45,530 nucleotides of DNA. Source: Ruminococcus sp. (lineage in GTDB: Bacteria; Bacillota; Clostridia; Oscillospirales; Ruminococcaceae). The position numbers and the translations under genes were made by a program. The notes below the pieces were generated by a model. That model saw only the letters and a program-made list of their open reading frames with translations, was not told where the DNA came from and did not search any database. Location: the NCBI GenBank assembly GCA_017525915.1, contig JAFXSC010000025.1, positions 1 to 45,530 on the forward strand, given 5' to 3'. Numbering within the stretch: position 1 is the first letter of the stretch; the number at the start of each line of letters is the position of its first letter. Positions 35,851 to 45,269 of the stretch are shown here, one piece after another.

Positions 35851-36957
35851 ATGATTTTCAATTGTGAACTGAAAAAAGTCGTTGACGACTCATACGACAT
35901 TGAGATAGGTCATTCACTTCGTGACAAACTCATAAACGACCTCAGAAACGGTCTGACCGGAAAAAAGAAATTTGCCGTTATTACCGATTCCATAGTCGAG
36001 GGGCTTTATGCACGCGGCATATATGAAGCCCTGCTCGCTGCCGGTTTCAGCGCTGAGATCTTCGTTATTCCCGAAGGCGAAAAGAGCAAGACACGTCCGA
36101 TGAAGGAATTTGTCGAGGACTCCATGCTCGAAAAGGGCTTCCGCCGTGACTGTGCCGTGATAGCCGTCGGTGGCGGAGTTGTGACTGACCTCGCCGGATT
36201 TGTTGCCGGAACATTTGGCAGAGGTGTCCCCTTCGTCAATTACGCGACCACTCTGCTTGCTGCCGCTGACGCTTCTGTCGGGGGAAAGACAGCCGTTGAT
36301 ACTCCCCTTGCGACCAACCTCATCGGAATTTTCAACCAGCCTGCAAAGGTCTACATCGACATCGACACATGGAAGACTCTGCCGCCGCGTCAGGTTTCGA
36401 GCGGACTTGCAGAGACTGTCAAGCACGGATGCCTTGGCGACCGTGAGCTTTTTGAATACCTTGAAAGCAACGTAGAAAAAGTGCTTTCCGGCGATACCTC
36501 AGCCTGCGAGTACATTGCCGAGCATAACTGCTCCGTTAAGTACAGAGTCGTTATGAAGGACGAGCGCGAGAGCGGACTTCGTGAGGTTCTGAACCTCGGT
36601 CATACGGTCGGAAGGGCGGTCGAAACCGTTTCCGATTACAGGCTTCTGCACGGCGAGGCGGTCTCGATCGGACTTGTCGCACAGGCGCGTCTCGGTGAAG
36701 TTCTTGGCTACATTTCGCACGATAACCGTGTACGGGTCGAGAAGCTGCTTGAACGTGCAGACCTTCCAATTGGTATACCTGAATATATCGACAAGAAAGT
36801 GCTTGTCAGAAAGCTCTACACCGATAAGAAGGTGCGCGACGGAAAGCTACGTTTCGTCTTCCAGAAAGAGATCGGCAGCGTTGTCCAGTTCGGCGAAAAC
36901 GACTTCGCAAAGGAGATAGCCGAGGACGAGATAGCGCGTATTATAGCGGAAATGTGA
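35851..36957 (+). CDS. aroB: 3-dehydroquinate synthase
   Basis: 368 residues. NAD-binding and active-site landmarks: IPEGEKSKT, AVGGGVVTDLAGFVAGTFGRG, PTTLLA variant YATTLLAAADASVGGKTAVD, LIGIFNQP, then the metal ligands Glu in SSGLAETVKHG and His in NLGHTVGRAVE and LHGEAVSIGLV. Converts DAHP to 3-dehydroquinate, step two of the shikimate pathway. AAAGGAG fixes the start. Monocistronic; a terminator follows at 37103. Confidence 0.97.
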   Translation: MIFNCELKKVVDDSYDIEIGHSLRDKLINDLRNGLTGKKKFAVITDSIVEGLYARGIYEALLAAGFSAEIFVIPEGEKSKTRPMKEFVEDSMLEKGFRRDCAVIAVGGGVVTDLAGFVAGTFGRGVPFVNYATTLLAAADASVGGKTAVDTPLATNLIGIFNQPAKVYIDIDTWKTLPPRQVSSGLAETVKHGCLGDRELFEYLESNVEKVLSGDTSACEYIAEHNCSVKYRVVMKDERESGLREVLNLGHTVGRAVETVSDYRLLHGEAVSIGLVAQARLGEVLGYISHDNRVRVEKLLERADLPIGIPEYIDKKVLVRKLYTDKKVRDGKLRFVFQKEIGSVVQFGENDFAKEIAEDEIARIIAEM

Positions 36958-37209: not shown

Positions 37210-37285
37210 AGGGGTATAGCTCAGTTGGTAGAGCAGCGGTCTCCAAAACCGCGTGCCGAGGGTTCAAGTCCTTCTGCCCCTGCCA
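37210..37285 (+). tRNA. tRNA-Trp (anticodon CCA)
   Basis: Cloverleaf: acceptor AGGGGTA pairs with TGCCCCT, then G and encoded CCA (37283-37285). D arm GCTCAGTTGGTAGAGC; anticodon stem GCGGT / ACCGC with loop CTCCAAA, anticodon CCA; T loop TTCAAGT. All arms pair with only G-T wobbles. The accessory island starts right after this gene, so the tRNA 3' end may serve as an attachment site; the matching second copy is not seen in the window. Confidence 0.96.
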
Positions 37286-37377: not shown

Positions 37378-37704
37378 GTGTGCATAAAAATCAGGTGAAA
37401 TGCACACGAAATGCACACGGAATGCACACGACTAAAAGGCAGTATAACGATAATAAATGAAGCCAGCTCCCGTAAGGGAGCTGTTTCTTTATAATAATAT
37501 TCATTAACAAAAGGTGCTTCAATGAATGTTGCCGTTTCTATACTCTTCCAAGAATCATTCAGCTTTTTTATTACTAAAATAAAAATGTGCATAGACCGAT
37601 CAAAATGTGCACAGACCATGTGCATGGACTTCTTACAGTGTGCATAATTGCTGTGCAAATCATTGCTCAATGTGTGCATTGTTTAGCATATGTATTGACG
37701 CACA
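37378..37704. repeat. Array of TGTGCA / TGCACA repeats upstream of the island operon
   Basis: Motif copies: GTGTGCAT 37378-37385; ATGCACAC at 37400, 37411 and 37422 (11-bp period); AAAATGTGCAYAGACC at 37582 and 37602 (20-bp period); TGTGCA at 37619, 37639, 37652 and 37673; GCACA at 37700-37704 inside the island promoter. At least eleven copies on both strands in 330 bp, non-coding. A 33-codon + frame ending at 37460 is too short to judge; it could be the tail of a lost gene. Confidence 0.75.
37464..37490 (+). terminator. Terminator inside the repeat region
   Basis: Perfect hairpin CAGCTCCC-N4-GGGAGCTG (37464-37483) followed by TTTCTTTA on the + strand. It insulates the island operon from the tRNA side, or is the end of a gene now lost. 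Confidence 0.7.
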
Positions 37705-37723
37705 TTTTGCTTTATGATATACT
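37695..37723 (+). promoter_or_regulatory. Promoter of the island operon
   Basis: -35 TTGACG (37695-37700), 17 nt, -10 TATACT (37718-37723). A GCACA copy of the repeat motif overlaps the -35, and four more TGTGCA copies lie within 80 bp upstream, so a repressor bound to the array would block it. Confidence 0.75.
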
Positions 37724-37788
37724 AAGGTCAACAGGAAAGACAGCAGAGAGCTGTTACGAACTGGGCTAATACCGAAGGAGGTATAATT

Positions 37789-37935
37789 ATGAATGATGTA
37801 ATGAAGGGCATGCTAATAATCTTAGTAATCATCTACGTAATTTCTCCCATTGATTTTGTTCCAGGACCAGTGGATGATATCATCGTTATTCTGCTGGGAA
37901 TTGCTAGTCAGAAGGAAATCGAAAACAACGAGTAA
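37789..37935 (+). CDS. Small DUF1232 membrane protein
   Basis: 48 residues, too short for usual gene callers. After MNDVMKGMLIILVIIYV it reads SPIDFVPGPVDDIIVILLG, the diagnostic core of the DUF1232 (YkvA-like) family: a membrane helix with a Pro-Asp turn. AAGGAGG at 37774-37780 supports the start. First gene of the island operon. A decayed copy of the same C-terminal segment lies at 41336-41392. The family's function is not known. Confidence 0.85.
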   Translation: MNDVMKGMLIILVIIYVISPIDFVPGPVDDIIVILLGIASQKEIENNE

Positions 37936-37948
37936 AACGCCCAACGCA

Positions 37949-37982
37949 TAGGGCGGATATCCAGTAAGTGTTATCCGCCCTA
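37949..37982 (+). promoter_or_regulatory. Intercistronic hairpin between DUF1232 and XRE-PIN-ANK genes
   Basis: Perfect 11-bp arms TAGGGCGGATA and TATCCGCCCTA with a 12-nt loop, and no T run. More likely an mRNA processing or attenuation element than a terminator; it could set the ratio of the two products. Confidence 0.6.
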
Positions 37983-38006
37983 TAATACCAAGAAGGAGGT
38001 AATCAT

Positions 38007-39347
38007 ATGTCTGAGAAAAATGATGTTAAAAATGAATTCCTGAAAGATGGTAAGAATGTTATCATCAGCAAAAAAATGAAGGAGATTCGCCTAAGTAAAG
38101 GTATGACACAGGGAGATGTGGCAAATAAACTTCATATTGATCGTTCTGTGTATGCTAAATACGAAACAGGAAAGCTCGCACCTACACAGGAAAGAATACA
38201 GGAATTTGCCAATATCTTCAATATTGAAATTAATGAACTTGAGAAGTGCGTTTCTGCTGTTATTCCCGATACATCGGCACTTCTTAAAAACAAAAGACTG
38301 TTAACTATGCTCTTGGAAGATTTTGATCTAGTGATCATTCCTGACACCGTATTGAACGAGCTTGACTATCAGAAAGATAACGGCAGGAACAAAAAGATTG
38401 CTTGGCAGGTAATGATGACAATCGACGAGTACCGTACTCGTTTTCGTGAGAGGTTATTATTTGAGAGAAGCAGTCACTTCAAGCAGGAGAAAAATGACGC
38501 AAAAATCATAGAACTAGCTGAGTATCTTAACAAAAAGCTCAATAAAATAATCTATCTTATCCATGATGACATCGGTATGTCACTCTCTTACGGTAACAGT
38601 ATCCTCTTAAAGGATTATATAGCCAAGCGCTCAAATAACACTAATTATGCAACATTTCTTGCTTTAGATGAAGAATATGAACATCTTGAAGCATTTCAGA
38701 AAATGATACCTGATCTTGACCTAAACATGTATCTGCCAGATGGTATGACTTTACTTATTAGCTGCATCAGATGCAATGATGAAGATAAATGTAACGAAAG
38801 AGACAATTATTACGTTTCAGAGACGAAGCAACTTAGAAAGCTTAAATTTCTTGTCGAAAATGGTGCTGATCTCGATAAGACTGATAATAGTAGATATTGT
38901 TTGACACCACTTGCCCATTGCGTACAAACAAGAAATTTCAAGCTATTTAATCTGTTACTTGAATTGGGAGCGGATTATAACAAAGGGTCTGTTGATGAAA
39001 CTACACCAAGTCACTTGAAGATGCAGAACATCAATGAAGGTAATACTCCTTTGATGATTGCTTGTTGGCACGCTAATAAAAAATTAGTTGAAAAGCTGTG
39101 TAGTCTCCCTGATATTTCATTGAATCAGCAAGATAGTAACGGATACACAGCACTAATCAAATGTGCGGTGCAAAGGTATAACAGGATAAAAGAAGGTAAA
39201 AAGGTCGATTACGTTGAATCAATTTACCGCTACCTTTTGACTTTAGAAAAGGTAGATACTCTTATCCGTGATCGCCAGAATAGAACTGCAAATGATTGGT
39301 GGCAATTAGGCAATGAGCTAAGAAAGGAAAAAGAAGAGAATGCTTGA
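38007..39347 (+). CDS. XRE DNA-binding / PIN ribonuclease / ankyrin-repeat fusion protein
   Basis: 446 residues with three parts. Residues 20-78: XRE helix-turn-helix (MKEIRLSKGMTQGDVANKL, DRSVYAKYETGKLAPT). Residues 84-205: PIN domain like those of PhoH2-type proteins, with acidic residues Asp88 (IPDTSALL), Glu118 (VLNELDYQK), Asp164 (EKNDAKIIELA) and Asp187/188 (LIHDDIGMS), so RNase activity is plausible. Residues 245-440: ankyrin repeats (KLKFLVENGADLDKTDN, LFNLLLELGADYNKG, NTPLMIACWHANKKLVEKL). A toxin-like nuclease, its own regulator and a protein-binding sensor in one chain. AAGGAGG precedes the ATG. Base and codon use are more AT-rich than in the core genes. Confidence 0.85.
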   Translation: MSEKNDVKNEFLKDGKNVIISKKMKEIRLSKGMTQGDVANKLHIDRSVYAKYETGKLAPTQERIQEFANIFNIEINELEKCVSAVIPDTSALLKNKRLLTMLLEDFDLVIIPDTVLNELDYQKDNGRNKKIAWQVMMTIDEYRTRFRERLLFERSSHFKQEKNDAKIIELAEYLNKKLNKIIYLIHDDIGMSLSYGNSILLKDYIAKRSNNTNYATFLALDEEYEHLEAFQKMIPDLDLNMYLPDGMTLLISCIRCNDEDKCNERDNYYVSETKQLRKLKFLVENGADLDKTDNSRYCLTPLAHCVQTRNFKLFNLLLELGADYNKGSVDETTPSHLKMQNINEGNTPLMIACWHANKKLVEKLCSLPDISLNQQDSNGYTALIKCAVQRYNRIKEGKKVDYVESIYRYLLTLEKVDTLIRDRQNRTANDWWQLGNELRKEKEENA

Positions 39348-40179
39348 TCGAGCTTGTATCAGTATCAACAATCGCTGTAACCTTAACTGCACCTACTGTC
39401 ATTTTCATACTTCTGAAAAGGAGAAATACCTTTCAGAGCACAGTATGGATGTATATGTTATTCTTAATAATATCAAGCATCACATCGACAAGTACAGTAT
39501 TCCGAAGTTTAAGCTCGGTTTCGTAGGAAACGGAGAACCTCTTCTTGATTACGATGTTCTTAGTAAATACATCGAGTACATTGACGATTACCTTTCAGAC
39601 GGCAGAATTGCTGCATATACCATTACAAATGGTACACTGATCACAGAAGAAATGCTCCGCTTCTTTAAGGCATACAACTTCAACGTTGGTTTCTCAATCG
39701 ATGGTATCCCTGAAATACATAACAAATGGCGTTGCAATACCCATAAAGAGGTGATGGAAGCCATTAACCAGTATCGTGCCGTAAATAAGTGCTATCCATC
39801 TATGAATTGCACGGTTGGAAAAGATACACTTGCCAAAACGGAAGAAACGATTGCTTTTTTTGAGCAGTTCGATAATAGAGTAACTTTTTCGCGAATGATC
39901 GGTACAAATGGTATTTCGTTAATCGATTTTCATGGATTCCTAGATAGAGCAATGAAAACGCTAAATGTCAGAACCGGAGGATATGATTGTACGATGTACG
40001 GCGGCAAGTGTGGTGCTGGAATAAACAACATCTTCTATGCTAATGGGAACGTCTATATCTGTGGAAATTGTGTGGACCTCCCACCTATCGCCAGATCCCA
40101 AGATCCTATTGACAGTATAAAACCGGATATTCCTGTGTTTGACAGGAACACTTGTTTCAAAGAAACTCAATGCATATAA
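39340..40179 (+). CDS. Radical SAM protein with SPASM-like auxiliary cluster domain
   Basis: 279 residues. Cluster motif CNLNCTYC with Cys13, Cys17, Cys20; GNGEP at 63-67 in place of GGEP; ITNGTLIT; FSIDGIPEIHNKWR, wording typical of anSME/peptide-modifying SPASM enzymes. The C-terminal part has Cys217, Cys224 (KCGAGINNIFYANGNVYIC), Cys241, Cys244, Cys272 and Cys278, enough for one auxiliary [4Fe-4S] cluster. Shorter than anSME (about 370-400). The ATG overlaps the XRE-PIN-ANK stop by 8 nt, so the two are translationally coupled. Target unknown: a protein or RiPP-like peptide is most likely from the domain type. Confidence 0.88.
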   Translation: MLDRACISINNRCNLNCTYCHFHTSEKEKYLSEHSMDVYVILNNIKHHIDKYSIPKFKLGFVGNGEPLLDYDVLSKYIEYIDDYLSDGRIAAYTITNGTLITEEMLRFFKAYNFNVGFSIDGIPEIHNKWRCNTHKEVMEAINQYRAVNKCYPSMNCTVGKDTLAKTEETIAFFEQFDNRVTFSRMIGTNGISLIDFHGFLDRAMKTLNVRTGGYDCTMYGGKCGAGINNIFYANGNVYICGNCVDLPPIARSQDPIDSIKPDIPVFDRNTCFKETQCI

Positions 40180-40197
40180 GCATTGGAATCGGTTTTA

Positions 40198-40215
40198 ATA
40201 TCCGTTTTCGGATAT
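40198..40215 (+). promoter_or_regulatory. Hairpin between radical SAM and NERD genes
   Basis: Perfect ATATCCG-TTTT-CGGATAT hairpin in the 99-nt gap, followed by AAAATATAATG. A weak processing or pausing site; a separate promoter is possible but not clear. Confidence 0.4.
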
Positions 40216-40278
40216 AAAATATAATGTAAACAGAAGAATCAAGGACACCGTTTTTCAACCTGTAAAGGAGGGCTTGAA

Positions 40279-41328
40279 ATGACTAATGATAAAAGAGTGA
40301 ATGAAATCATTTCCCAGATTACCGCTTTTTCAAAGGCCACATGCACCAAGAGCGAGTTTCTGCCTGAGTTGCTAAAACTACAAAAAGAGCTGATAGATCT
40401 GACTTTCAACGCTGAACACGCTGAGAACGGTGATCTTCGCCTGTGGGACGTGGAAAGGCACCTACGCAAGATGAACGATGAGCGTGGTCATGTTGCAGAT
40501 GATGAGCTCGCTAGATTTATTCAGGGTTGCAAAGTGGTTAGCAACAATATCAGTGCTGAGTTCTCAGGAAATGTCGGAGAACAGAAAGTGTTTAGAGCTT
40601 TAGAAAACCTTAGCTGTCAGAATGGAGTACTGCATAATGTTGAACTCGAATTTGACGGAAGGCGTACAGAAATAGATGCAATCGTCTTTACTAATCATGC
40701 AATCTTCATCATCGAAATCAAAAACAGTAAGAAAGACATTTTTATTGATGAGGATGGAGAATTCTACAGGACAGGTCATTCTATGCATCATGACTGTAAT
40801 ATTGCAGAAAAAATGGATGAACGTGAAGCCCTGCTCCGGAAGGCTCTTGATAGAGTTGGTCTGAACTATCTGAAGATTTTTAGGATAGTGACATTCACAA
40901 ATCCACGTATTGATGTGGAGAACAAGTATCACTACATCAAAGTATGCGGAAGCAACTATCTCCCCTCATTTATCGAAAAATTCACAAGTAGTCAGTGGTA
41001 TACATACGAAGACATCTGTACTATGATGGCAGCTGTCAATGAAGTTAAGTGTACTGATGAATACCAGATGAATATTGATATGAATGGTTATAAAAATGAT
41101 TTTGCAACGCTCATGGCTAAGCTTGAAGCAGCCGAAGAATCCGATAATGAGAGCGAGACTGTTGATCAGCCAAACAATAAGCCTGAAAAGGTTGTTGATA
41201 GTAATGCCAAGTCTCATAGGATAAAGCAGAAAGATCGCGATTACGGAAAAGGGATAGTTGCGGCAGTTGTTGGTGTGACACTTATTAATGCTGCACTTCT
41301 TGTTGGTAGCAGATTAATCAAAAAATGA
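40279..41328 (+). CDS. NERD-domain protein with C-terminal membrane anchor
   Basis: 349 residues. N-terminal helical part 1-90. NERD (nuclease-related) domain about 95-215: GNVGEQKVFRALENL (Glu101), FDGRRTEIDAIVFTNHAIFI (Asp133) and IEIKNSKKDIF (Glu146, Lys148), i.e. the E..D..ExK core of a restriction-endonuclease-like fold, intact. Middle region acidic, then basic KSHRIKQKDRDYGKG and a hydrophobic end (about 320-345, GIVAAVVGVTLINAALLVG), probably a tail anchor. Suggests a nuclease held at the membrane. GGAGGG lies 8 nt before the ATG. The stop is overlapped by the DUF1232 remnant. Confidence 0.82.
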   Translation: MTNDKRVNEIISQITAFSKATCTKSEFLPELLKLQKELIDLTFNAEHAENGDLRLWDVERHLRKMNDERGHVADDELARFIQGCKVVSNNISAEFSGNVGEQKVFRALENLSCQNGVLHNVELEFDGRRTEIDAIVFTNHAIFIIEIKNSKKDIFIDEDGEFYRTGHSMHHDCNIAEKMDEREALLRKALDRVGLNYLKIFRIVTFTNPRIDVENKYHYIKVCGSNYLPSFIEKFTSSQWYTYEDICTMMAAVNEVKCTDEYQMNIDMNGYKNDFATLMAKLEAAEESDNESETVDQPNNKPEKVVDSNAKSHRIKQKDRDYGKGIVAAVVGVTLINAALLVGSRLIKK

Positions 41329-41392
41329 TGGCGCTATGGACAATGTTATTGTTCTTCTGCTTGGCATAACAGCAAATAAGAATCGGGGGTGA
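41321..41392 (+). pseudogene. 3' remnant of a second DUF1232 gene
   Basis: In frame from 41321 to a TGA at 41390-41392 the codons give NDGAMDNVIVLLLGITANK, which aligns with PGPVDDIIVILLGIASQK of the gene at 37789-37935. There is an ATG at 41336 but no ribosome site. The remnant ends within the ribosome-binding region of the next gene. The two copies differ at many positions, so this is not a recent duplication. Confidence 0.65.
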
Positions 41393-41397
41393 ACAAG

Positions 41398-42999
41398 ATG
41401 AAGTATGTATTATATGGACTGCCGTGTGCAGGAAAATCAACTATAATGCAGGACCTTGCTATTCCCGTTATACACGGGAGTACAGAGCTAAACAGGATGG
41501 CATCAGGAAACTTTTCGAAGCTTCCTGATGAAGAAAAGATTAAACTTCGCATCAGATATGCTGAACAGCTGGTCAATAGGAACGATAGTTTTATCTCGGA
41601 CGGACATTACTCTTTTCTTGATGATATCGTCTTTACCGAAGCTGACGGTGATCTGTATGATGTGTTTATCTACCTATATTGTGATTCTAAGGTTATTAGC
41701 GAAAGACTAAAAAGCTCGACAAAGAACGAACAATTTGCAAAGCTTTCTGCTGAACATATACGCAAGTGGCAGGACTTTGAGATAGAAAGTCTGCGGAGTG
41801 AATGTCATAAGCGAAATAAAGACTTCTATGTGGTTCACAATGTTAAATCGGCAGATTTACAAAAATTCATAGACGAAATTGAGGCTGGTTATAGCTCATA
41901 CTATATCGCCCAAAGAATTGCAGATAAGATAATGAATATATATCCTGCTCCTTGTGAGCTTCACATCTGCGATGGTGATAAGACTATAATCGAACAGGAC
42001 TCCTTCAGAGTATGTACTGATAACTATGTTACTCACACATTTGACGGAAACTTCTATACGGGGTATCAGTCGATGCAATTCGGTACAGAAACAGGCAACA
42101 TGAATTACGACATGACTAAGCTCTCTACAATACATCTTAATGAAGCTGTATATGGAAGAATAGCTGATAAGAACTATGTAGTGCTTTCGTCAGGCATTAG
42201 TATACTTTGGGAAAAGTTAGCTGTTCAGTTTGGTCTGAAAAATGTAATAGCAGATACTTGTATTTCAGCCGATACTAAATATTTCGTCGTTAATATGCTA
42301 CAGAATAAGGGGTATTCTATAATCGCCTATGGTGACGGTAAGAATGACTTTTATATGCTTAAGCAAGCCAATAAGGGCTATCTCTATATTGGTTCTTATC
42401 TCAGCCGTTCTCTTAAGAACACCGACCTTTCAGGCATCGAATTAATCTATGATAAGACACCGTATATACTGGCAGATGTAACTGATACAGTATCCGAGGA
42501 GATTGCAATCTGCAAGTCCAATTCTGGTATCAACGGTTCAAGGCTTGCGGATGCACATCTAAAACTTGGCAGAATACTTGGTGAAGTGATTCATAGATTC
42601 ATCCCTAACATTGGTAGTGCGATTATTGTTCTTGATCGCGGAGGAAGGTTCTTTGGTGATGGTGTATACATAGGATTTGGCGGTGTATTCTTCCCTTATA
42701 ATACTAAGAAAGACGATTCACCAGATATTCATAGCAATATAGTAGTTATCGTTGACAGTGTTATCAATACGGGCAAGTCAATCCTTGATACGATCAAAAA
42801 GGTGAAGCAGAAATCTCCTGGTGCCGAAGTGTTCATTGTAGCCAATGTTATTCAGGAGAAGGCAGTTGAAGTCTTGAAAGAATATAAGGTTTTCGCAGTC
42901 AGAACCTCCGCCAACTCTTTTGTTGGTAGCAGACAGACCGAACAAAAGAATGGTAAAGGTCCGGATACAGCTGATAGGTTGTTCAATTACATTCAATAA
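41398..42999 (+). CDS. P-loop kinase / HAD phosphatase / uracil-phosphoribosyltransferase-like fusion
   Basis: 533 residues in three enzyme domains. Kinase 1 to about 165: Walker A GLPCAGKST (7-15), LSAEHIRKWQDFE. HAD about 185-365, SerB-like: CDGDKT with Asp192 and Asp194, VVLSSGIS as motif II, YGDGKNDFYML (312-317) as motif IV. PRTase about 380-533: PRPP loop IVDSVINTGKS (452-461) and the closing GKGPDTADRLFN (519-530), which mirrors the uracil-binding GDAGDRLF of Upp. All catalytic motifs look intact. The order suggests making or recycling a modified nucleotide. GGGGGTG supports ATG 41398; a GTG at 41389 is possible. Confidence 0.85.
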   Translation: MKYVLYGLPCAGKSTIMQDLAIPVIHGSTELNRMASGNFSKLPDEEKIKLRIRYAEQLVNRNDSFISDGHYSFLDDIVFTEADGDLYDVFIYLYCDSKVISERLKSSTKNEQFAKLSAEHIRKWQDFEIESLRSECHKRNKDFYVVHNVKSADLQKFIDEIEAGYSSYYIAQRIADKIMNIYPAPCELHICDGDKTIIEQDSFRVCTDNYVTHTFDGNFYTGYQSMQFGTETGNMNYDMTKLSTIHLNEAVYGRIADKNYVVLSSGISILWEKLAVQFGLKNVIADTCISADTKYFVVNMLQNKGYSIIAYGDGKNDFYMLKQANKGYLYIGSYLSRSLKNTDLSGIELIYDKTPYILADVTDTVSEEIAICKSNSGINGSRLADAHLKLGRILGEVIHRFIPNIGSAIIVLDRGGRFFGDGVYIGFGGVFFPYNTKKDDSPDIHSNIVVIVDSVINTGKSILDTIKKVKQKSPGAEVFIVANVIQEKAVEVLKEYKVFAVRTSANSFVGSRQTEQKNGKGPDTADRLFNYIQ

Positions 43000-43015
43000 G
43001 GAAAGGCGGTGTTAT

Positions 43016-43210
43016 ATGAATAAGAATGAAGATGTCATCTATGATCCCAATGTTGATTACGACAGCTTGGAACAACATACATATGATGACACACCGGGAT
43101 ACACATTTTACTCTTGTCCAAAATGCGGACATGAATTTCTAGCAACATTTATAGTGGAAGAAGATGGCGAAACCATGTGCATTGATTGTTGGAATCGCCT
43201 TCGTGGATGA
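43016..43210 (+). CDS. Small acidic zinc-ribbon protein
   Basis: 64 residues. The N-terminal half is Asp/Tyr-rich (YDPNVDYDSLEQHTYDD); the C-terminal half is a zinc ribbon with CPKCG and, 21 residues later, CIDC. It begins 17 nt after the fusion enzyme's stop; ribosome site GGAAAGGCGG is modest. Possibly a nucleic-acid- or protein-binding accessory of the operon. No known family. Confidence 0.75.
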   Translation: MNKNEDVIYDPNVDYDSLEQHTYDDTPGYTFYSCPKCGHEFLATFIVEEDGETMCIDCWNRLRG

Positions 43211-43230
43211 CTAAAACAGGAGGTAATTTT

Positions 43231-43497
43231 ATGAGGCATGTTTTCAGGGCTACAAAACTCGGATGGGACGAGGAAAAAGAAGGTGTTTGGTTCGATTCGG
43301 ATCATTACACCAAAGAAGAAGCTGAAGAACAGTTTAAGCCATATCAGGGTGTCACCCAGAAGGGCTATCCGTATACTGGTTACGAGTATGACGGTCAGAA
43401 ATACCATGATTACCAATATCTCGGCGAATATGAGGATGATAAAATGCCTCAAAATGACAAGGAATACTTTGATTCTCTCTTAGAAAGGAACAGATAA
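43231..43497 (+). CDS. Small acidic Tyr/Gly-rich protein, unknown function
   Basis: 88 residues: MRHVFRATKLGWDEEKEGV, a helical EEAEEQFKPY, then an unusual stretch with repeated Tyr (KGYPYTGYEYDGQKYHDY, then QYLGEYEDD). About one residue in seven is Tyr. AGGAGG 8 nt before the ATG. Last gene on this strand of the island operon. Not a family I recognise. Composition and position make it a candidate substrate or partner of the radical SAM enzyme, which is speculation. Confidence 0.7.
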   Translation: MRHVFRATKLGWDEEKEGVWFDSDHYTKEEAEEQFKPYQGVTQKGYPYTGYEYDGQKYHDYQYLGEYEDDKMPQNDKEYFDSLLERNR

Positions 43498-43566: not shown

Positions 43567-44166
43567 TTAGTTGTCACTGTACAGCTTGTAGAAGTAAGAG
43601 CGAGATATACCTAATTCCCGTATTGCTTCCACAGGCCTTTTGTTTCCGCTGCGGACATCTGCCATTATCTGCTGCCAGTTGTAAGGTAGAGACTTTGGCG
43701 GACGCCCGAAGCGGACGTTTTTCTTTTTGGCAGCTTCAATGCCCTCGCGCTGACGAGCTCGTATCTTGTTACGCTCGTTTTCAGCTATAGCGCCGAGCAC
43801 CTCAATAAGGATGGCATTTATCATTTCGAGTACCCATGCTTGCTCCGGCGGAAAGTCCGTAAGCGTTGTAGGTATGTCCAGTATCTTCACACGGATACCC
43901 ATATCTTTGAACTGTTCCAGTTCTCGTTTGATGTCAGTCTTATTCCTACTGAGCCTGTCCAGTTCTTTTATGACAAGCGTATCGCCCTTCCGGAGTATCT
44001 GACGTTTGAGGTATTGATAACCTTCGCGCTCAGTATCTTTACCGGAAGCCTTGTCGATAATGATGTTCTGTTCAGGCACACCGAACTTAGTAAGAGCTTC
44101 GATCTGCCTGTCCTCATTTTGTTCCCGGGTAGATACCCGGGCGTATCCATAAATTCTATTGTCCAT
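43567..44166 (-). CDS. Small serine recombinase (resolvase/invertase family)
   Basis: 199 residues. Catalytic Ser in YGYARVSTREQNEDRQ (about residue 12), then LVIKELDRLSRNKTD with the conserved DRLSR arginines, the long E helix (AILIEVLGAIAENERNKIRARQREG) and a C-terminal helix-turn-helix (RPVEAIRELGISRSYFYKL). Typical full length for the resolvase/invertase group, so it acts on short paired sites. The GGAGG ribosome site is good. Repeated GTCCATAAA boxes upstream (44161-44291) are likely its sites or operator. Confidence 0.95.
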   Translation of the reverse strand: MDNRIYGYARVSTREQNEDRQIEALTKFGVPEQNIIIDKASGKDTEREGYQYLKRQILRKGDTLVIKELDRLSRNKTDIKRELEQFKDMGIRVKILDIPTTLTDFPPEQAWVLEMINAILIEVLGAIAENERNKIRARQREGIEAAKKKNVRFGRPPKSLPYNWQQIMADVRSGNKRPVEAIRELGISRSYFYKLYSDN

Positions 44167-44291: not shown

Positions 44292-45269
44292 TTAAAAAGC
44301 GCCGCAGTAGCTCTCATAAACATCTTCACCGCACATATACTTCACGTCCCTGAGAGCTTCATGGAGCAGGTTCGTGTCCATAAGCATTTCCTCCACCTCA
44401 TCTGCCGTATACCCCCACTCAAGCAGAAGTTCTACATCCTCGCTGTCAACGCCATAGCAGCTACAGTATGCAAGCAAGATTTCCTCGTGCATATTGTAAT
44501 AGGGCGAGTCGTCGAGACCGTACCATGATCCGTACTTGGAGCGATATATCTTAGGCTCAAACTCCGAGCGTGTAATATTTCCATTTTTGTCAATACGAAT
44601 GATATCGCCCTCATCTGTTTTGATTCTTTCATTTGCGAACTTATGCAAGCCTATCCTACGGAGAGCGTTCTTCATGATACTTTCGGTGGATGCGTATACA
44701 TACAGCCCGATATCTTTAAAGTGAAGCAGGCACATTGGGTTGCTGCCTTTGACAATGTATAAGCTATTGCTGTCATCAAGAACTGAGAAGGCGAAGTTGC
44801 CCTCTACGGTCTCAGCCATATACTTGAGGCTGTCAAAGTCCAGCTTGTTCTGCTGCTCTATCAGCTGACATGCGGCATAACTATCAGTCTCAATGTGTGT
44901 CTCGGGTATGAGCTTCTCCTTGCGGAGCTCACGATCATTCCACAATACACCGTTATGAGCAAAAGCGAAAGAAGTATCGCCGGCTATACCGGCGAACGGA
45001 TGATTGTTATAGTTGTATTTTTCGTTTCCCTGAGTGGTCATACGGGTATGCCCCATGACAGCTCTTGTGCCTTCCGGCGGATTGAAGTGAAGCTTATGAG
45101 CAGGCTTAGGGCGCTTATAGATTACTACCTTACCGTTATTGATGTAGCTGATACCGGCTGCATCCGTGCCTCTCTCTTCCGCAGCATTAGCCAGTGCCTG
45201 AGTGAGCTTGCGTAAAACTTTATGAGGGATAATCCCCTGATAATCGAGAAATCCGAATAAACTACACAT
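44292..45269 (-). CDS. Class II glutamine amidotransferase-domain protein
   Basis: 325 residues. Ntn-type amidotransferase: Cys2 nucleophile in MCSLFGFLDY, RGTDAAGISY, MGHTRMTTQGN (the arginine and histidine that bind glutamine), FAFAHNGVLWND and ETDSYAACQLIEQ. This corresponds to the glutaminase half of GlmS or PurF. No synthase domain follows; residues about 255-325 are a charged helical tail (LLLEWGYTADEVEEMLMDTNLL). Stand-alone versions occur in phages and mobile elements. AAGGAGG fixes the start; 2 nt separate it from the small gene upstream. Confidence 0.85.
   Translation of the reverse strand: MCSLFGFLDYQGIIPHKVLRKLTQALANAAEERGTDAAGISYINNGKVVIYKRPKPAHKLHFNPPEGTRAVMGHTRMTTQGNEKYNYNNHPFAGIAGDTSFAFAHNGVLWNDRELRKEKLIPETHIETDSYAACQLIEQQNKLDFDSLKYMAETVEGNFAFSVLDDSNSLYIVKGSNPMCLLHFKDIGLYVYASTESIMKNALRRIGLHKFANERIKTDEGDIIRIDKNGNITRSEFEPKIYRSKYGSWYGLDDSPYYNMHEEILLAYCSCYGVDSEDVELLLEWGYTADEVEEMLMDTNLLHEALRDVKYMCGEDVYESYCGAF

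What the first reader, a model, noticed from the sequence alone, without database searches (positions are those of the whole stretch)
37695..43497. Candidate undescribed stress/defence operon downstream of tRNA-Trp
Seen: one strong promoter and seven same-strand genes: DUF1232, XRE-PIN-ankyrin, radical SAM/SPASM (8-nt overlap with the previous gene), membrane NERD, kinase-HAD-UPRT fusion, zinc ribbon and Tyr-rich small protein. They sit in an AT-richer stretch starting at a tRNA and ending at a serine recombinase. Known: PIN and NERD domains are nucleases of toxin and defence systems; XRE regulators, small Zn-ribbon proteins and tRNA sites are typical of defence islands. Inference: the operon senses a stress or phage cue (ankyrins), and combines RNA cleavage with synthesis or repair of a nucleotide. 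I know of no named system with this gene set.
Basis: partly seen in the sequence, partly recalled or inferred. Interest (0 to 1): 0.85.

Follow-up and report, generated by a model that had tools for sequence, protein, structure and literature searches.

The report
Mobile ankyrin ribonuclease and radical-enzyme operon
A mobile set of three genes - a DNA-binding ribonuclease with ankyrin repeats, a radical-chemistry enzyme and a nucleotide-making fusion enzyme - recurs together in bacteria, in an archaeon and in virus-classed DNA, matched no catalogue searched here, and may be a stress- or phage-triggered immune switch that has not been tested in the laboratory.

Summary
In detail: seven same-strand genes lie in an AT-rich stretch between tRNA-Trp and a serine resolvase. 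The real unit is smaller. Three genes form a conserved core: XRE-PIN-ankyrin ribonuclease, radical SAM with auxiliary-cluster cysteines (rSAM), and P-loop kinase-HAD-uracil-PRTase (KHP, one gene or two). rSAM-seeded scans of species genomes and viral contigs gave, with the window, 66 loci: 57 hold every core part, 6 are cut by contig ends, 3 are decayed. Hosts span Clostridia, Gammaproteobacteria, Treponema, Fibrobacter, Kiritimatiellae and an archaeon. Catalytic residues are nearly invariant; NERD, DUF1232, Zn-ribbon and Tyr-rich genes are optional.

New: rSAM and KHP co-diverge while XRE-PIN-Ank is swapped, and repeat arrays upstream match the XRE type: TGTGCA with type 4 (51 seen, 3.4 expected), TGTTGCA with type 3 (39 against 3.1). 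The ribonuclease thus probably binds its own promoter region.

No library or paper search names this set. Best reading: an autoregulated PIN ribonuclease gated through conserved ankyrins by a product of rSAM plus KHP, in defence. Some loci lie near Hma, DISARM, Druantia or AbiE genes, but a flank control showed no general enrichment.

The parts
37210..37285 (+). tRNA-Trp (CCA anticodon) at the left edge
   Evidence: ARAGORN
37586..37678 (+). Array of six TGTGCA direct repeats, start-to-start spacing 20-13-20-13-21; predicted operators of the XRE domain
   Evidence: same spacing in L027 (plus one more copy), L047 and L057; 51 copies seen against 3.4 expected in 11 type-4 loci
37695..37723 (+). 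Sigma-70-like promoter TTGACG-17-TATACT, directly downstream of the array
   Evidence: both hexamers also in L027 and L047
37789..37935 (+). DUF1232-like small protein (accessory), between promoter and core
   Evidence: 19 bits, below the cut-off of 23
38007..39347 (+). CORE 1: XRE-PIN-ankyrin protein, predicted autoregulated ribonuclease effector
   Evidence: PIN acids D88 50/52, E118 52/52, D164 50/52, D188 52/52
39340..40179 (+). CORE 2: radical SAM enzyme with C-terminal cysteines of SPASM/twitch type (type judged by eye)
   Evidence: C13, C17, C20, C217, C224, C241 and C272 each 54/54
40279..41328 (+). NERD nuclease-related protein with a C-terminal hydrophobic stretch (accessory)
   Evidence: 10 of 65 entries and 4 of 5 viral loci
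41327..41392 (+). Tail of a second DUF1232-like frame after NERD, without its N-terminal part; L027 has an open frame there
41398..42999 (+). CORE 3: P-loop kinase - HAD phosphatase - uracil-PRTase-like fusion (KHP)
   Evidence: G12, K13, D68, H70, D192, D194, T196, K294, D313, D317, D453 and G521-P522-D523 without exception among the rows aligned there
43016..43210 (+). Small Zn-ribbon-like protein (accessory; found in this locus only)
43231..43497 (+). Small Tyr-rich protein (accessory; also in L025 and L050)
43567..44166 (-). Serine resolvase/invertase, right edge
   Evidence: PF00239 104 bits

Best explanation
It is a mobile, self-regulated, predicted immune (abortive-type) operon with three core parts. 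Shown by comparison: the three proteins recur as one block across phyla with nearly invariant catalytic residues; rSAM and KHP co-diverge; XRE-PIN-Ank is exchanged between systems; repeat arrays upstream carry a sequence that follows the XRE-PIN-Ank type. Inferred: XRE-PIN-Ank binds the repeats next to its own promoter and keeps the operon low with its PIN ribonuclease held back. rSAM and KHP together make, or trim, a small pyrimidine-type nucleotide: the UPRT-like domain joins a base to PRPP, the kinase phosphorylates it, the HAD domain dephosphorylates it, and rSAM modifies the base, the sugar or a partner. When infection or stress shifts the level of that compound, the conserved ankyrin surface senses it, the protein leaves DNA, the operon is induced and the PIN domain cleaves RNA, stopping growth and phage production. 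NERD with DUF1232 is an optional extra module. The sign of the ligand (activator or inhibitor), the substrate of rSAM and the RNA target are not known.
For: Block recurrence: 57 of 66 loci with every core part. PIN-Ank-seeded check in viral contigs: 7 hits, of which 5 are the known trio loci, 1 is cut by the contig end and 1 is ankyrin only. Catalytic residues. rSAM-KH distance correlation 0.897 over 53 loci, 0 of 500 permutations as high, against 0.50 and 0.44 for the pairs with PIN-Ank; within the Clostridia-type clade 0.70 against 0.12-0.14. PIN-Ank types 3 and 4 need 8 and 6 changes on the rSAM tree, at least 6 and 5 forced by supported branches. Type-matched repeat arrays; label permutation 0 of 20000. 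Ankyrin is the most conserved domain: mean pairwise identity 0.46, PIN 0.36, HTH 0.32. Patchy presence (4 of 247 genomes), lower GC than flanks in 24 of 31 loci, copies in virus-classed contigs. Neighbours in hand-picked loci: HmaA-HmaB-HmaC, DrmA-DrmB, DruE1, AbiEi-AbiEii. Decayed loci L047 and L061 keep PIN-Ank with its catalytic acids without an intact KHP, which fits an effector that is off by default.
Against: No experiment. Most named families of the nearest flanking genes are ordinary. PADLOC models matched by far-flank ORFs (67 models) are not fewer than those matched by near ones (19 models), so general defence-island enrichment is not shown. The closest rSAM relatives are peptide and protein maturases, not nucleotide enzymes. 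The ankyrin similarity to RNase L is weaker than to many other ankyrins. The rSAM seed patterns came from trio-bearing loci, so rSAM relatives in other settings could have been missed. Two type-4 proteins with TGTGCA arrays (L036, L057) have deviating helix sequences. No structure could be predicted.
Confidence: 0.42

Rival explanations
1. The radical SAM enzyme modifies a protein, most likely XRE-PIN-Ank or KHP itself (a maturase), and KHP supplies or recycles a cofactor; the system is a maturation-controlled ribonuclease, not a nucleotide-signal pathway.
For: All 54 members match SPASM peptide-maturase models (PapB, CcpM, HxsB) and 53 match the sulfatase maturase model; the best solved relatives are a radical SAM domain protein (5wgg) and the anaerobic sulfatase-maturating enzyme. 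No conserved small precursor frame was found on the outer sides of the core (no cluster in more than 7 of 57 loci, the largest being the accessory c7 and NERD N-termini), so a core protein would be the substrate.
Against: rSAM co-diverges with KHP, not with PIN-Ank. For the window protein the scores to the 25 NCBIfam models shown are all below their cut-offs.
Confidence: 0.22
2. Toxin-antitoxin-like guard: rSAM and KHP make a ligand that keeps the PIN ribonuclease off; loss of the ligand (nucleotide drain by a phage) releases it.
For: XRE fused to the RNase and type-matched arrays resemble autoregulated TA modules; kinase and phosphatase in one protein could set a level.
Against: Loci L047 and L061 keep PIN-Ank with its four catalytic acids (judged by eye) without an intact KHP; that would be lethal if the ligand were an obligatory antitoxin and the frames are real.
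Confidence: 0.18
3. RNA-repair cycle: PIN cuts RNA and the kinase-HAD part heals the ends like T4 polynucleotide kinase-phosphatase (layout recalled).
For: Kinase plus HAD in one polypeptide, next to an RNase.
Against: The kinase matches AAA_17 in 47 of 69 aligned rows, a model of small-molecule kinases as recalled; the best HAD matches among solved structures are P-type ATPase and phosphoserine phosphatase HAD domains; a UPRT-like domain has no evident role in end repair and the radical SAM is unexplained; no RNA ligase is among the core domains.
Confidence: 0.07
4. Cargo regulator of the mobile element (lysogeny, maintenance or metabolic island) without immune function.
For: Presence in virus-classed contigs, four of five with serine-recombinase-like frames nearby; many copies sit between ordinary genes.
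Against: The trio occurs with many differing flanks, so it is not tied to one element; a nuclease with nearly invariant acids suggests an active strike.
Confidence: 0.08

Closest known systems
RNase L / 2-5A pathway (animal)
   Same: Ankyrin repeats joined to a ribonuclease; a nucleotide-making partner is imagined upstream
   Different: PIN instead of the RNase L nuclease domain (layout and ligand site of RNase L recalled); no OAS-like synthetase among the Pfam matches; many other ankyrins score higher; analogy only
Prokaryotic viperins (pVip)
   Same: Radical SAM enzyme next to a nucleotide-kinase-like domain in a candidate defence operon (kinase link of viperins as named in PADLOC)
   Different: NCBIfam viperin score 56 against a cut-off of 180; C-terminal cysteines conserved; better matches to maturases
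CBASS and type III CRISPR signalling
   Same: Idea of a small nucleotide signal gating a nuclease (recalled)
   Different: No CD-NTase, Cas10 or CARF family among the Pfam matches of the seven operon proteins
Type II toxin-antitoxin (VapBC and PIN toxins)
   Same: PIN ribonuclease, probable autoregulation by a DNA-binding domain
   Different: DNA-binding domain and PIN are one protein; no separate antitoxin in the core; two enzyme genes conserved instead
Ter stress systems (nucleoside-like metabolite; recalled)
   Same: PRTase and HAD in a proposed nucleotide biosynthetic module
   Different: PRTase_2 score 16 against a cut-off of 29 and no TerD-like family among the Pfam matches
VMAP/FtsH ternary conflict systems with radical SAM (PMC7159879, passages seen)
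   Same: SPASM radical SAM in a conflict system; PIN effectors occur in that class
   Different: There the enzyme goes with a peptide gene and vWA-MoxR parts; no such domains among the Pfam matches and no conserved small frame on the outer sides of the core

Membership tests
Prokaryotic viperin | Passes the curated viperin model (NF038283) | tested here: not met
   56.2 bits against a cut-off of 180 for the window protein; 37 of 54 members match at E up to 1e-10, best 7.3e-19
CBASS | CD-NTase in the operon | tested here: not met
   No CD-NTase family among the Pfam matches of the seven operon proteins
Type II toxin-antitoxin | Separate antitoxin gene next to the PIN toxin | tested here: not met
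   XRE fused to PIN; next gene in the core is radical SAM
Type II toxin-antitoxin | Autoregulation at operator repeats | tested here: inconclusive
   Type-matched repeat arrays predict it; binding not tested
Ter biosynthetic module | PRTase_2 (PF15609) domain | tested here: not met
   16.4 bits against a cut-off of 28.8
RNase L-like pathway | Ankyrin domain on a ribonuclease-type domain | tested here: met
   PIN_4 and ankyrin models on one protein
RNase L-like pathway | Ankyrins bind a nucleotide ligand | not testable with these tools
RiPP maturation system | Precursor peptide gene beside the radical SAM gene | tested here: not met
   No conserved small frame within 700 nt on the outer sides of the core; largest clusters 7 of 57 loci, accessory genes; gaps between core genes and more distant places were not searched
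UPRTase (Pfam PF14681) | Score above the curated cut-off | tested here: met
   27.6 against 27 in the window; 38 of 69 aligned rows match at E up to 0.001, best 2.6e-13; rows of split genes without the PRTase part cannot match
NERD (accessory gene) | Score above the curated cut-off of PF08378 | tested here: met
   58.4 against 22.1
Known defence systems of PADLOC-DB 2.0.0 | A model that covers a core protein at full length | tested here: not met
   Only partial matches, such as the XRE part of RmrA, pVip 50.7 bits, PRTase_III-A 21 bits

The most novel reading that the evidence does not exclude
A prokaryotic counterpart, by convergence, of the RNase L pathway: radical SAM and the kinase-HAD-UPRT enzyme make an unknown modified pyrimidine nucleotide that the conserved ankyrin surface of XRE-PIN-Ank reads, switching one protein from a repressor lined up on an array of operator repeats to a free ribonuclease that stops phage growth. 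The repressor-effector and its operators are swapped as one module between otherwise stable biosynthetic pairs.
Probability: 0.22. Interest if true: 0.93.

Novelty: categorically new. Interest (0 to 1): 0.78.

Why it matters
If the reading is right, this is a widely scattered but unnamed prokaryotic immune or stress system with two unusual features: a ribonuclease that is also the DNA-binding regulator of its own operon, and an enzyme pair (radical SAM plus kinase-HAD-UPRT) that would make an unknown signal or cofactor. It gives a concrete, testable place to look for new antiviral nucleotide chemistry outside CBASS and viperin, and a natural series of operator-repressor swaps for studying how such systems exchange parts. 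The label 'categorically new' refers to the gene set, which matched no library and no paper search made here; the general idea of a ligand-gated ribonuclease is known.

Tried and rejected
Seven-gene unit: rejected, because NERD, DUF1232, Tyr-rich and Zn-ribbon appear in only 10, 9, 3 and 1 of 65 entries (63 distinct loci). RiPP precursor: no conserved small frame on the outer sides of the core. tRNA attachment as a general rule: 6 of the 50 loci scanned hold a tRNA (L028, L057, L063, L069, L078, L082), in no constant place. Empty-site comparison: the gene left of the tRNA (35851-36957, looks like 3-dehydroquinate synthase, recalled) is found in 5 of 40 same-genus genomes including the window's own; three of the four others were fetched, share only that gene with the window by blastn and show no tRNA in the stretch taken, so no empty site could be read. 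A 21-nt imperfect repeat on both sides of the operon (37341 and 43508, 86%) is one of 46 direct-repeat families and was not taken as att sites.

General defence-island enrichment: the nearest flanking ORF of 150 aa or more on each side (89 ORFs of 51 loci; one with a bad frame dropped, leaving 88 of 50) matched 19 PADLOC models at E up to 1e-20, the largest count being 3 ORFs for one model. The far control (94 of 104 ORFs more than 5.5 kb from the core) matched 67 models, 25 listed. The output does not say how many proteins these are, and the far set itself holds hand-noted defence genes (AbiE in L067, HmaA in L068), but the test does not support enrichment. The defence neighbours were picked by eye: 20 proteins of 11 loci, 15 with any match at E up to 1e-8, several of these only weak or helicase-level matches (L077, L041), 5 with none.

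Other searches: KHP of the window in plasmids, phages and viral contigs: none; Vibrio-type rSAM in plasmids and phages: none. Order-level search with the four-row KHP profile: apart from the window's own gene 14 weak hits confined to the HAD part, with at most 3 candidates scored per genome. Phylum-level search with PIN-Ank: the window and one ankyrin-only hit in 398 genomes, at most 4 candidates scored per genome. Paper searches; searches returned no paper at all. I saw passages only of PMC13092281, PMC10853773, PMC10732462, PMC12839542 and PMC7159879, and listings only of the rest; none of the passages describes this trio. The operator motif TGTGCA was noticed in the window after the fact and then counted elsewhere; TGTTGCA came from the repeat list, so its count is partly circular. 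One search also listed ATGTGCA in L036 and L057 before the count. Without the window and its near copies L027 and L047, the remaining 8 type-4 loci hold 31 TGTGCA against about 2.6 expected, 7 of 8 with three or more, L060 with none (from the rows).


Full report
1. Observation. The window is a whole 45,530-base contig of a 3.09-Mb genome. Domains were checked with Pfam, PADLOC and NCBIfam and PHROGs. The stretch is AT-rich against the contig, starts after tRNA-Trp and ends at a serine resolvase. The gene beyond the resolvase, a class II amidotransferase-like protein, has seven matches in this genome and ten in a relative, so the right side is probably mobile DNA.

2. What the unit is. A search of 247 genomes of the family with KHP gave four hits, the window's included. 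Two of the other three showed the same neighbours, a PIN-Ank-type frame and a radical SAM gene, one of them with KHP at only 31% identity. A radical-SAM-seeded scan of the species-genome collection (84,980 genomes by its description) gave 61 loci. Its two seed patterns came from trio-bearing loci, so radical SAM relatives without these motifs were not sampled. Profiles built from the window proteins and iterated over the loci show nearly always the same order and strand: XRE-PIN-Ank, radical SAM, KHP, the last either one gene or a kinase-HAD gene plus a PRTase gene. A scan of viral contigs gave 25 loci; 5 belong to the family (radical SAM above 300 bits) and all 5 carry the trio, 4 with NERD, 3 with DUF1232, 4 with serine-recombinase-like frames in the locus; the other 20 score under 90 bits and have neither PIN-Ank nor KHP.

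3. Audit (read). With the window there are 66 loci with the radical SAM gene (L084, a fragment too short for the audit, was left out). 54 pass a strict automatic test; the window and L027 fail it only because NERD lies between, and L029 because KHP lies upstream, so 57 of 66 hold every core part by profile match. One of these, L083, has its kinase-HAD gene in two frames; L033 and L037 have PIN-Ank cut by the contig start. Six are cut by contig ends (L036, L043, L045, L046, L064, L076); for L043 the frame ends 82 nt before the contig end, so its PRTase may be absent rather than cut. Three are decayed: L047 (radical SAM truncated, no KHP), L061 (KHP truncated), L079 (PIN-Ank missing, radical SAM truncated, KHP in two frames). 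Reciprocal checks: PIN-Ank in 3 of 247 and radical SAM in 3 of 247 genomes of the family, the same three (at most 7 and 10 candidates scored per genome); KHP in those three and in G035, where a fragment lies at a contig start. PIN-Ank-seeded viral scan: 7 loci, 5 known trio loci, 1 cut by the contig end, 1 ankyrin only. L086 and L088 repeat the contigs of L026 and L076 and were left out of the 66.

4. Spread. The radical SAM tree of 59 rows has a Clostridia-type clade that includes one Anaerobiospirillum (Pseudomonadota) row, and a second clade of 17 rows with Vibrionaceae, Neptuniibacter, Lonepinella, Treponema, Fibrobacter, Kiritimatiellae, four Bacillota and a Methanomassiliicoccaceae archaeon. 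Presence is sparse: 4 of 247, 3 of 148. GC of the core is below its flanks in 24 of the 31 loci long enough to compare (Wilcoxon p 2.4e-5). This fits horizontal spread; contigs of metagenome bins may be misplaced.

5. Parts and residues. PIN: D88 50/52, E118 52/52, D164 50/52, D188 52/52. Radical SAM: C13, C17, C20 and the C-terminal C217, C224, C241, C272 are 54/54. KHP: G12 and K13 47/47, D68 and H70 47/47, HAD D192 47/47, D194 and T196 48/48, K294, D313 and D317 47/47, PRTase D453 41/41, and the UPRT-like end G521-P522-D523 40/40. Pfam over the 69 aligned rows: AAA_17 47, UPRTase 38, HAD 20. The roles as catalytic motifs and the enzymatic activities are inferred from these families and from general knowledge.

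6. Co-divergence and swapping. Distance matrices of radical SAM and kinase-HAD correlate at 0.897 over 53 loci (0 of 500 permutations as high); PIN-Ank correlates with them at 0.50 and 0.44, also 0 of 500. Inside the Clostridia-type clade (34 loci) the figures are 0.70 against 0.12-0.14 for the PIN-Ank domains. Clustering of PIN-Ank gives five, four or three types at three cut-offs; with four, types 3 and 4 need 8 and 6 changes on the radical SAM tree of 51 rows, at least 6 and 5 forced by supported branches. For example the window's nearest radical SAM is L025 (77%), whose PIN-Ank is 30% identical, while that of L027 is 91%. So the effector-regulator is exchanged more freely and the two enzymes stay together.

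7. Operator arrays. Upstream of the promoter lie six TGTGCA repeats spaced 20-13-20-13-21; L047 and L057 have the same spacing and L027 the same with one more copy. Counts in 600 nt upstream of XRE-PIN-Ank, expectation from the rest of each locus: type 4, 11 of 13 loci, TGTGCA 51 (3.4 expected), TGTTGCA 0 (1.2); type 3, 20 of 23 loci, TGTGCA 11 (6.9), TGTTGCA 39 (3.1); type 1, 4 of 5, and type 2, 11 of 12 loci, no excess (loci with under 600 nt upstream or no full start were left out). Among type 4, L060 has none; among type 3, L028, L043, L048 and L053 have no TGTTGCA. The majority sequence in the presumed recognition-helix region differs between the types (DRSVYxKYESGK-like against NKSTLSRxExG-like), though L036 and L057 of type 4 deviate. 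Shuffling type labels over 30 loci (L047 left out) never reached the observed difference in 20,000 trials; related loci are not independent, so this is not an exact probability. The simplest reading is that XRE-PIN-Ank binds the array before its own operon.

8. Why defence is favoured, and how weakly. For: a nuclease with nearly invariant acids, patchy distribution, virus-classed contigs, optional NERD, and neighbours that belong to known systems in some loci: HmaA, HmaB and HmaC beside the archaeal copy, DruE1 next to L029, DrmA and DrmB about 3 kb upstream in L080, AbiEi and AbiEii about 6 kb away in L067, AbiD in L037 and L056 (proteins picked by eye). Against: the families found most often among unpicked nearest flanking ORFs are mostly housekeeping or transport (the first 25 of 95 families), and PADLOC matches there are not more frequent than in far-flank ORFs (19 models; 67 models). 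The claim of enrichment is therefore not made.

9. Mechanism. The ankyrin domain is the most conserved part of its protein (mean pairwise identity 0.46, PIN 0.36, HTH 0.32), with invariant or nearly invariant polar positions (R255 47/52; N343, N373, D376, N378, K385 and D417 52/52). This fits a fixed ligand or partner better than a rapidly changing phage sensor. The co-diverging enzyme pair would be the source of that ligand or the partner. L047 and L061 keep XRE-PIN-Ank with its four catalytic acids (judged by eye on the printed sequences) without an intact KHP, so the RNase is probably silent by default. The main weakness is the radical SAM step: its best relatives are peptide and sulfatase maturases, but no precursor peptide gene was found on the outer sides of the core.

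10. Known or new. No library model covers a core protein at full length among the matches listed. Paper searches in an open-licence library found no description; subscription papers and preprints were mostly not held. Papers seen in passages: PMC13092281 (PIN and HAD proteins in newly tested systems, no match to this trio in the passages), PMC10853773, PMC10732462, PMC12839542, PMC7159879.

Noticed in passing
window 44292-45269 (-): Class II amidotransferase-like gene (GATase_6) with seven matches in its own genome and ten in a relative; looks like a mobile-element gene of unknown role.
   Followed up: partly
window 41327-41392: Tail of a second DUF1232-like frame after NERD; L027 has an open frame in the same place, so NERD-DUF1232 may be one accessory cassette.
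   Followed up: partly
L049:421-2912, L080:6895-9989, L090:7474-9983: Loci with two PIN-ankyrin genes in tandem; in L049 and L080 one matches the profile from its start and one only from after the XRE part, L090 judged by frame size.
   Followed up: no
L025, L026 (= L086), L027, L028: A further accessory family of about 110-124 aa, beginning MAW(D/N)ANEKGN in three of them, next to KHP.
   Followed up: no
L055:797, L066:7711, L071:12797: A shared gene of 216-221 aa that looks like a DnaQ-type 3'-5' exonuclease (judged by eye, no family search) near the core in three loci.
   Followed up: no
L089-L092: Frames weakly matching the resolvase profile, probably large serine recombinases, two or three in a row, in four of five viral-contig copies.
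   Followed up: no
window 37401-37428: Three TGCACA copies 11 nt apart, in opposite orientation to the main array and about 160 nt upstream of it.
   Followed up: no
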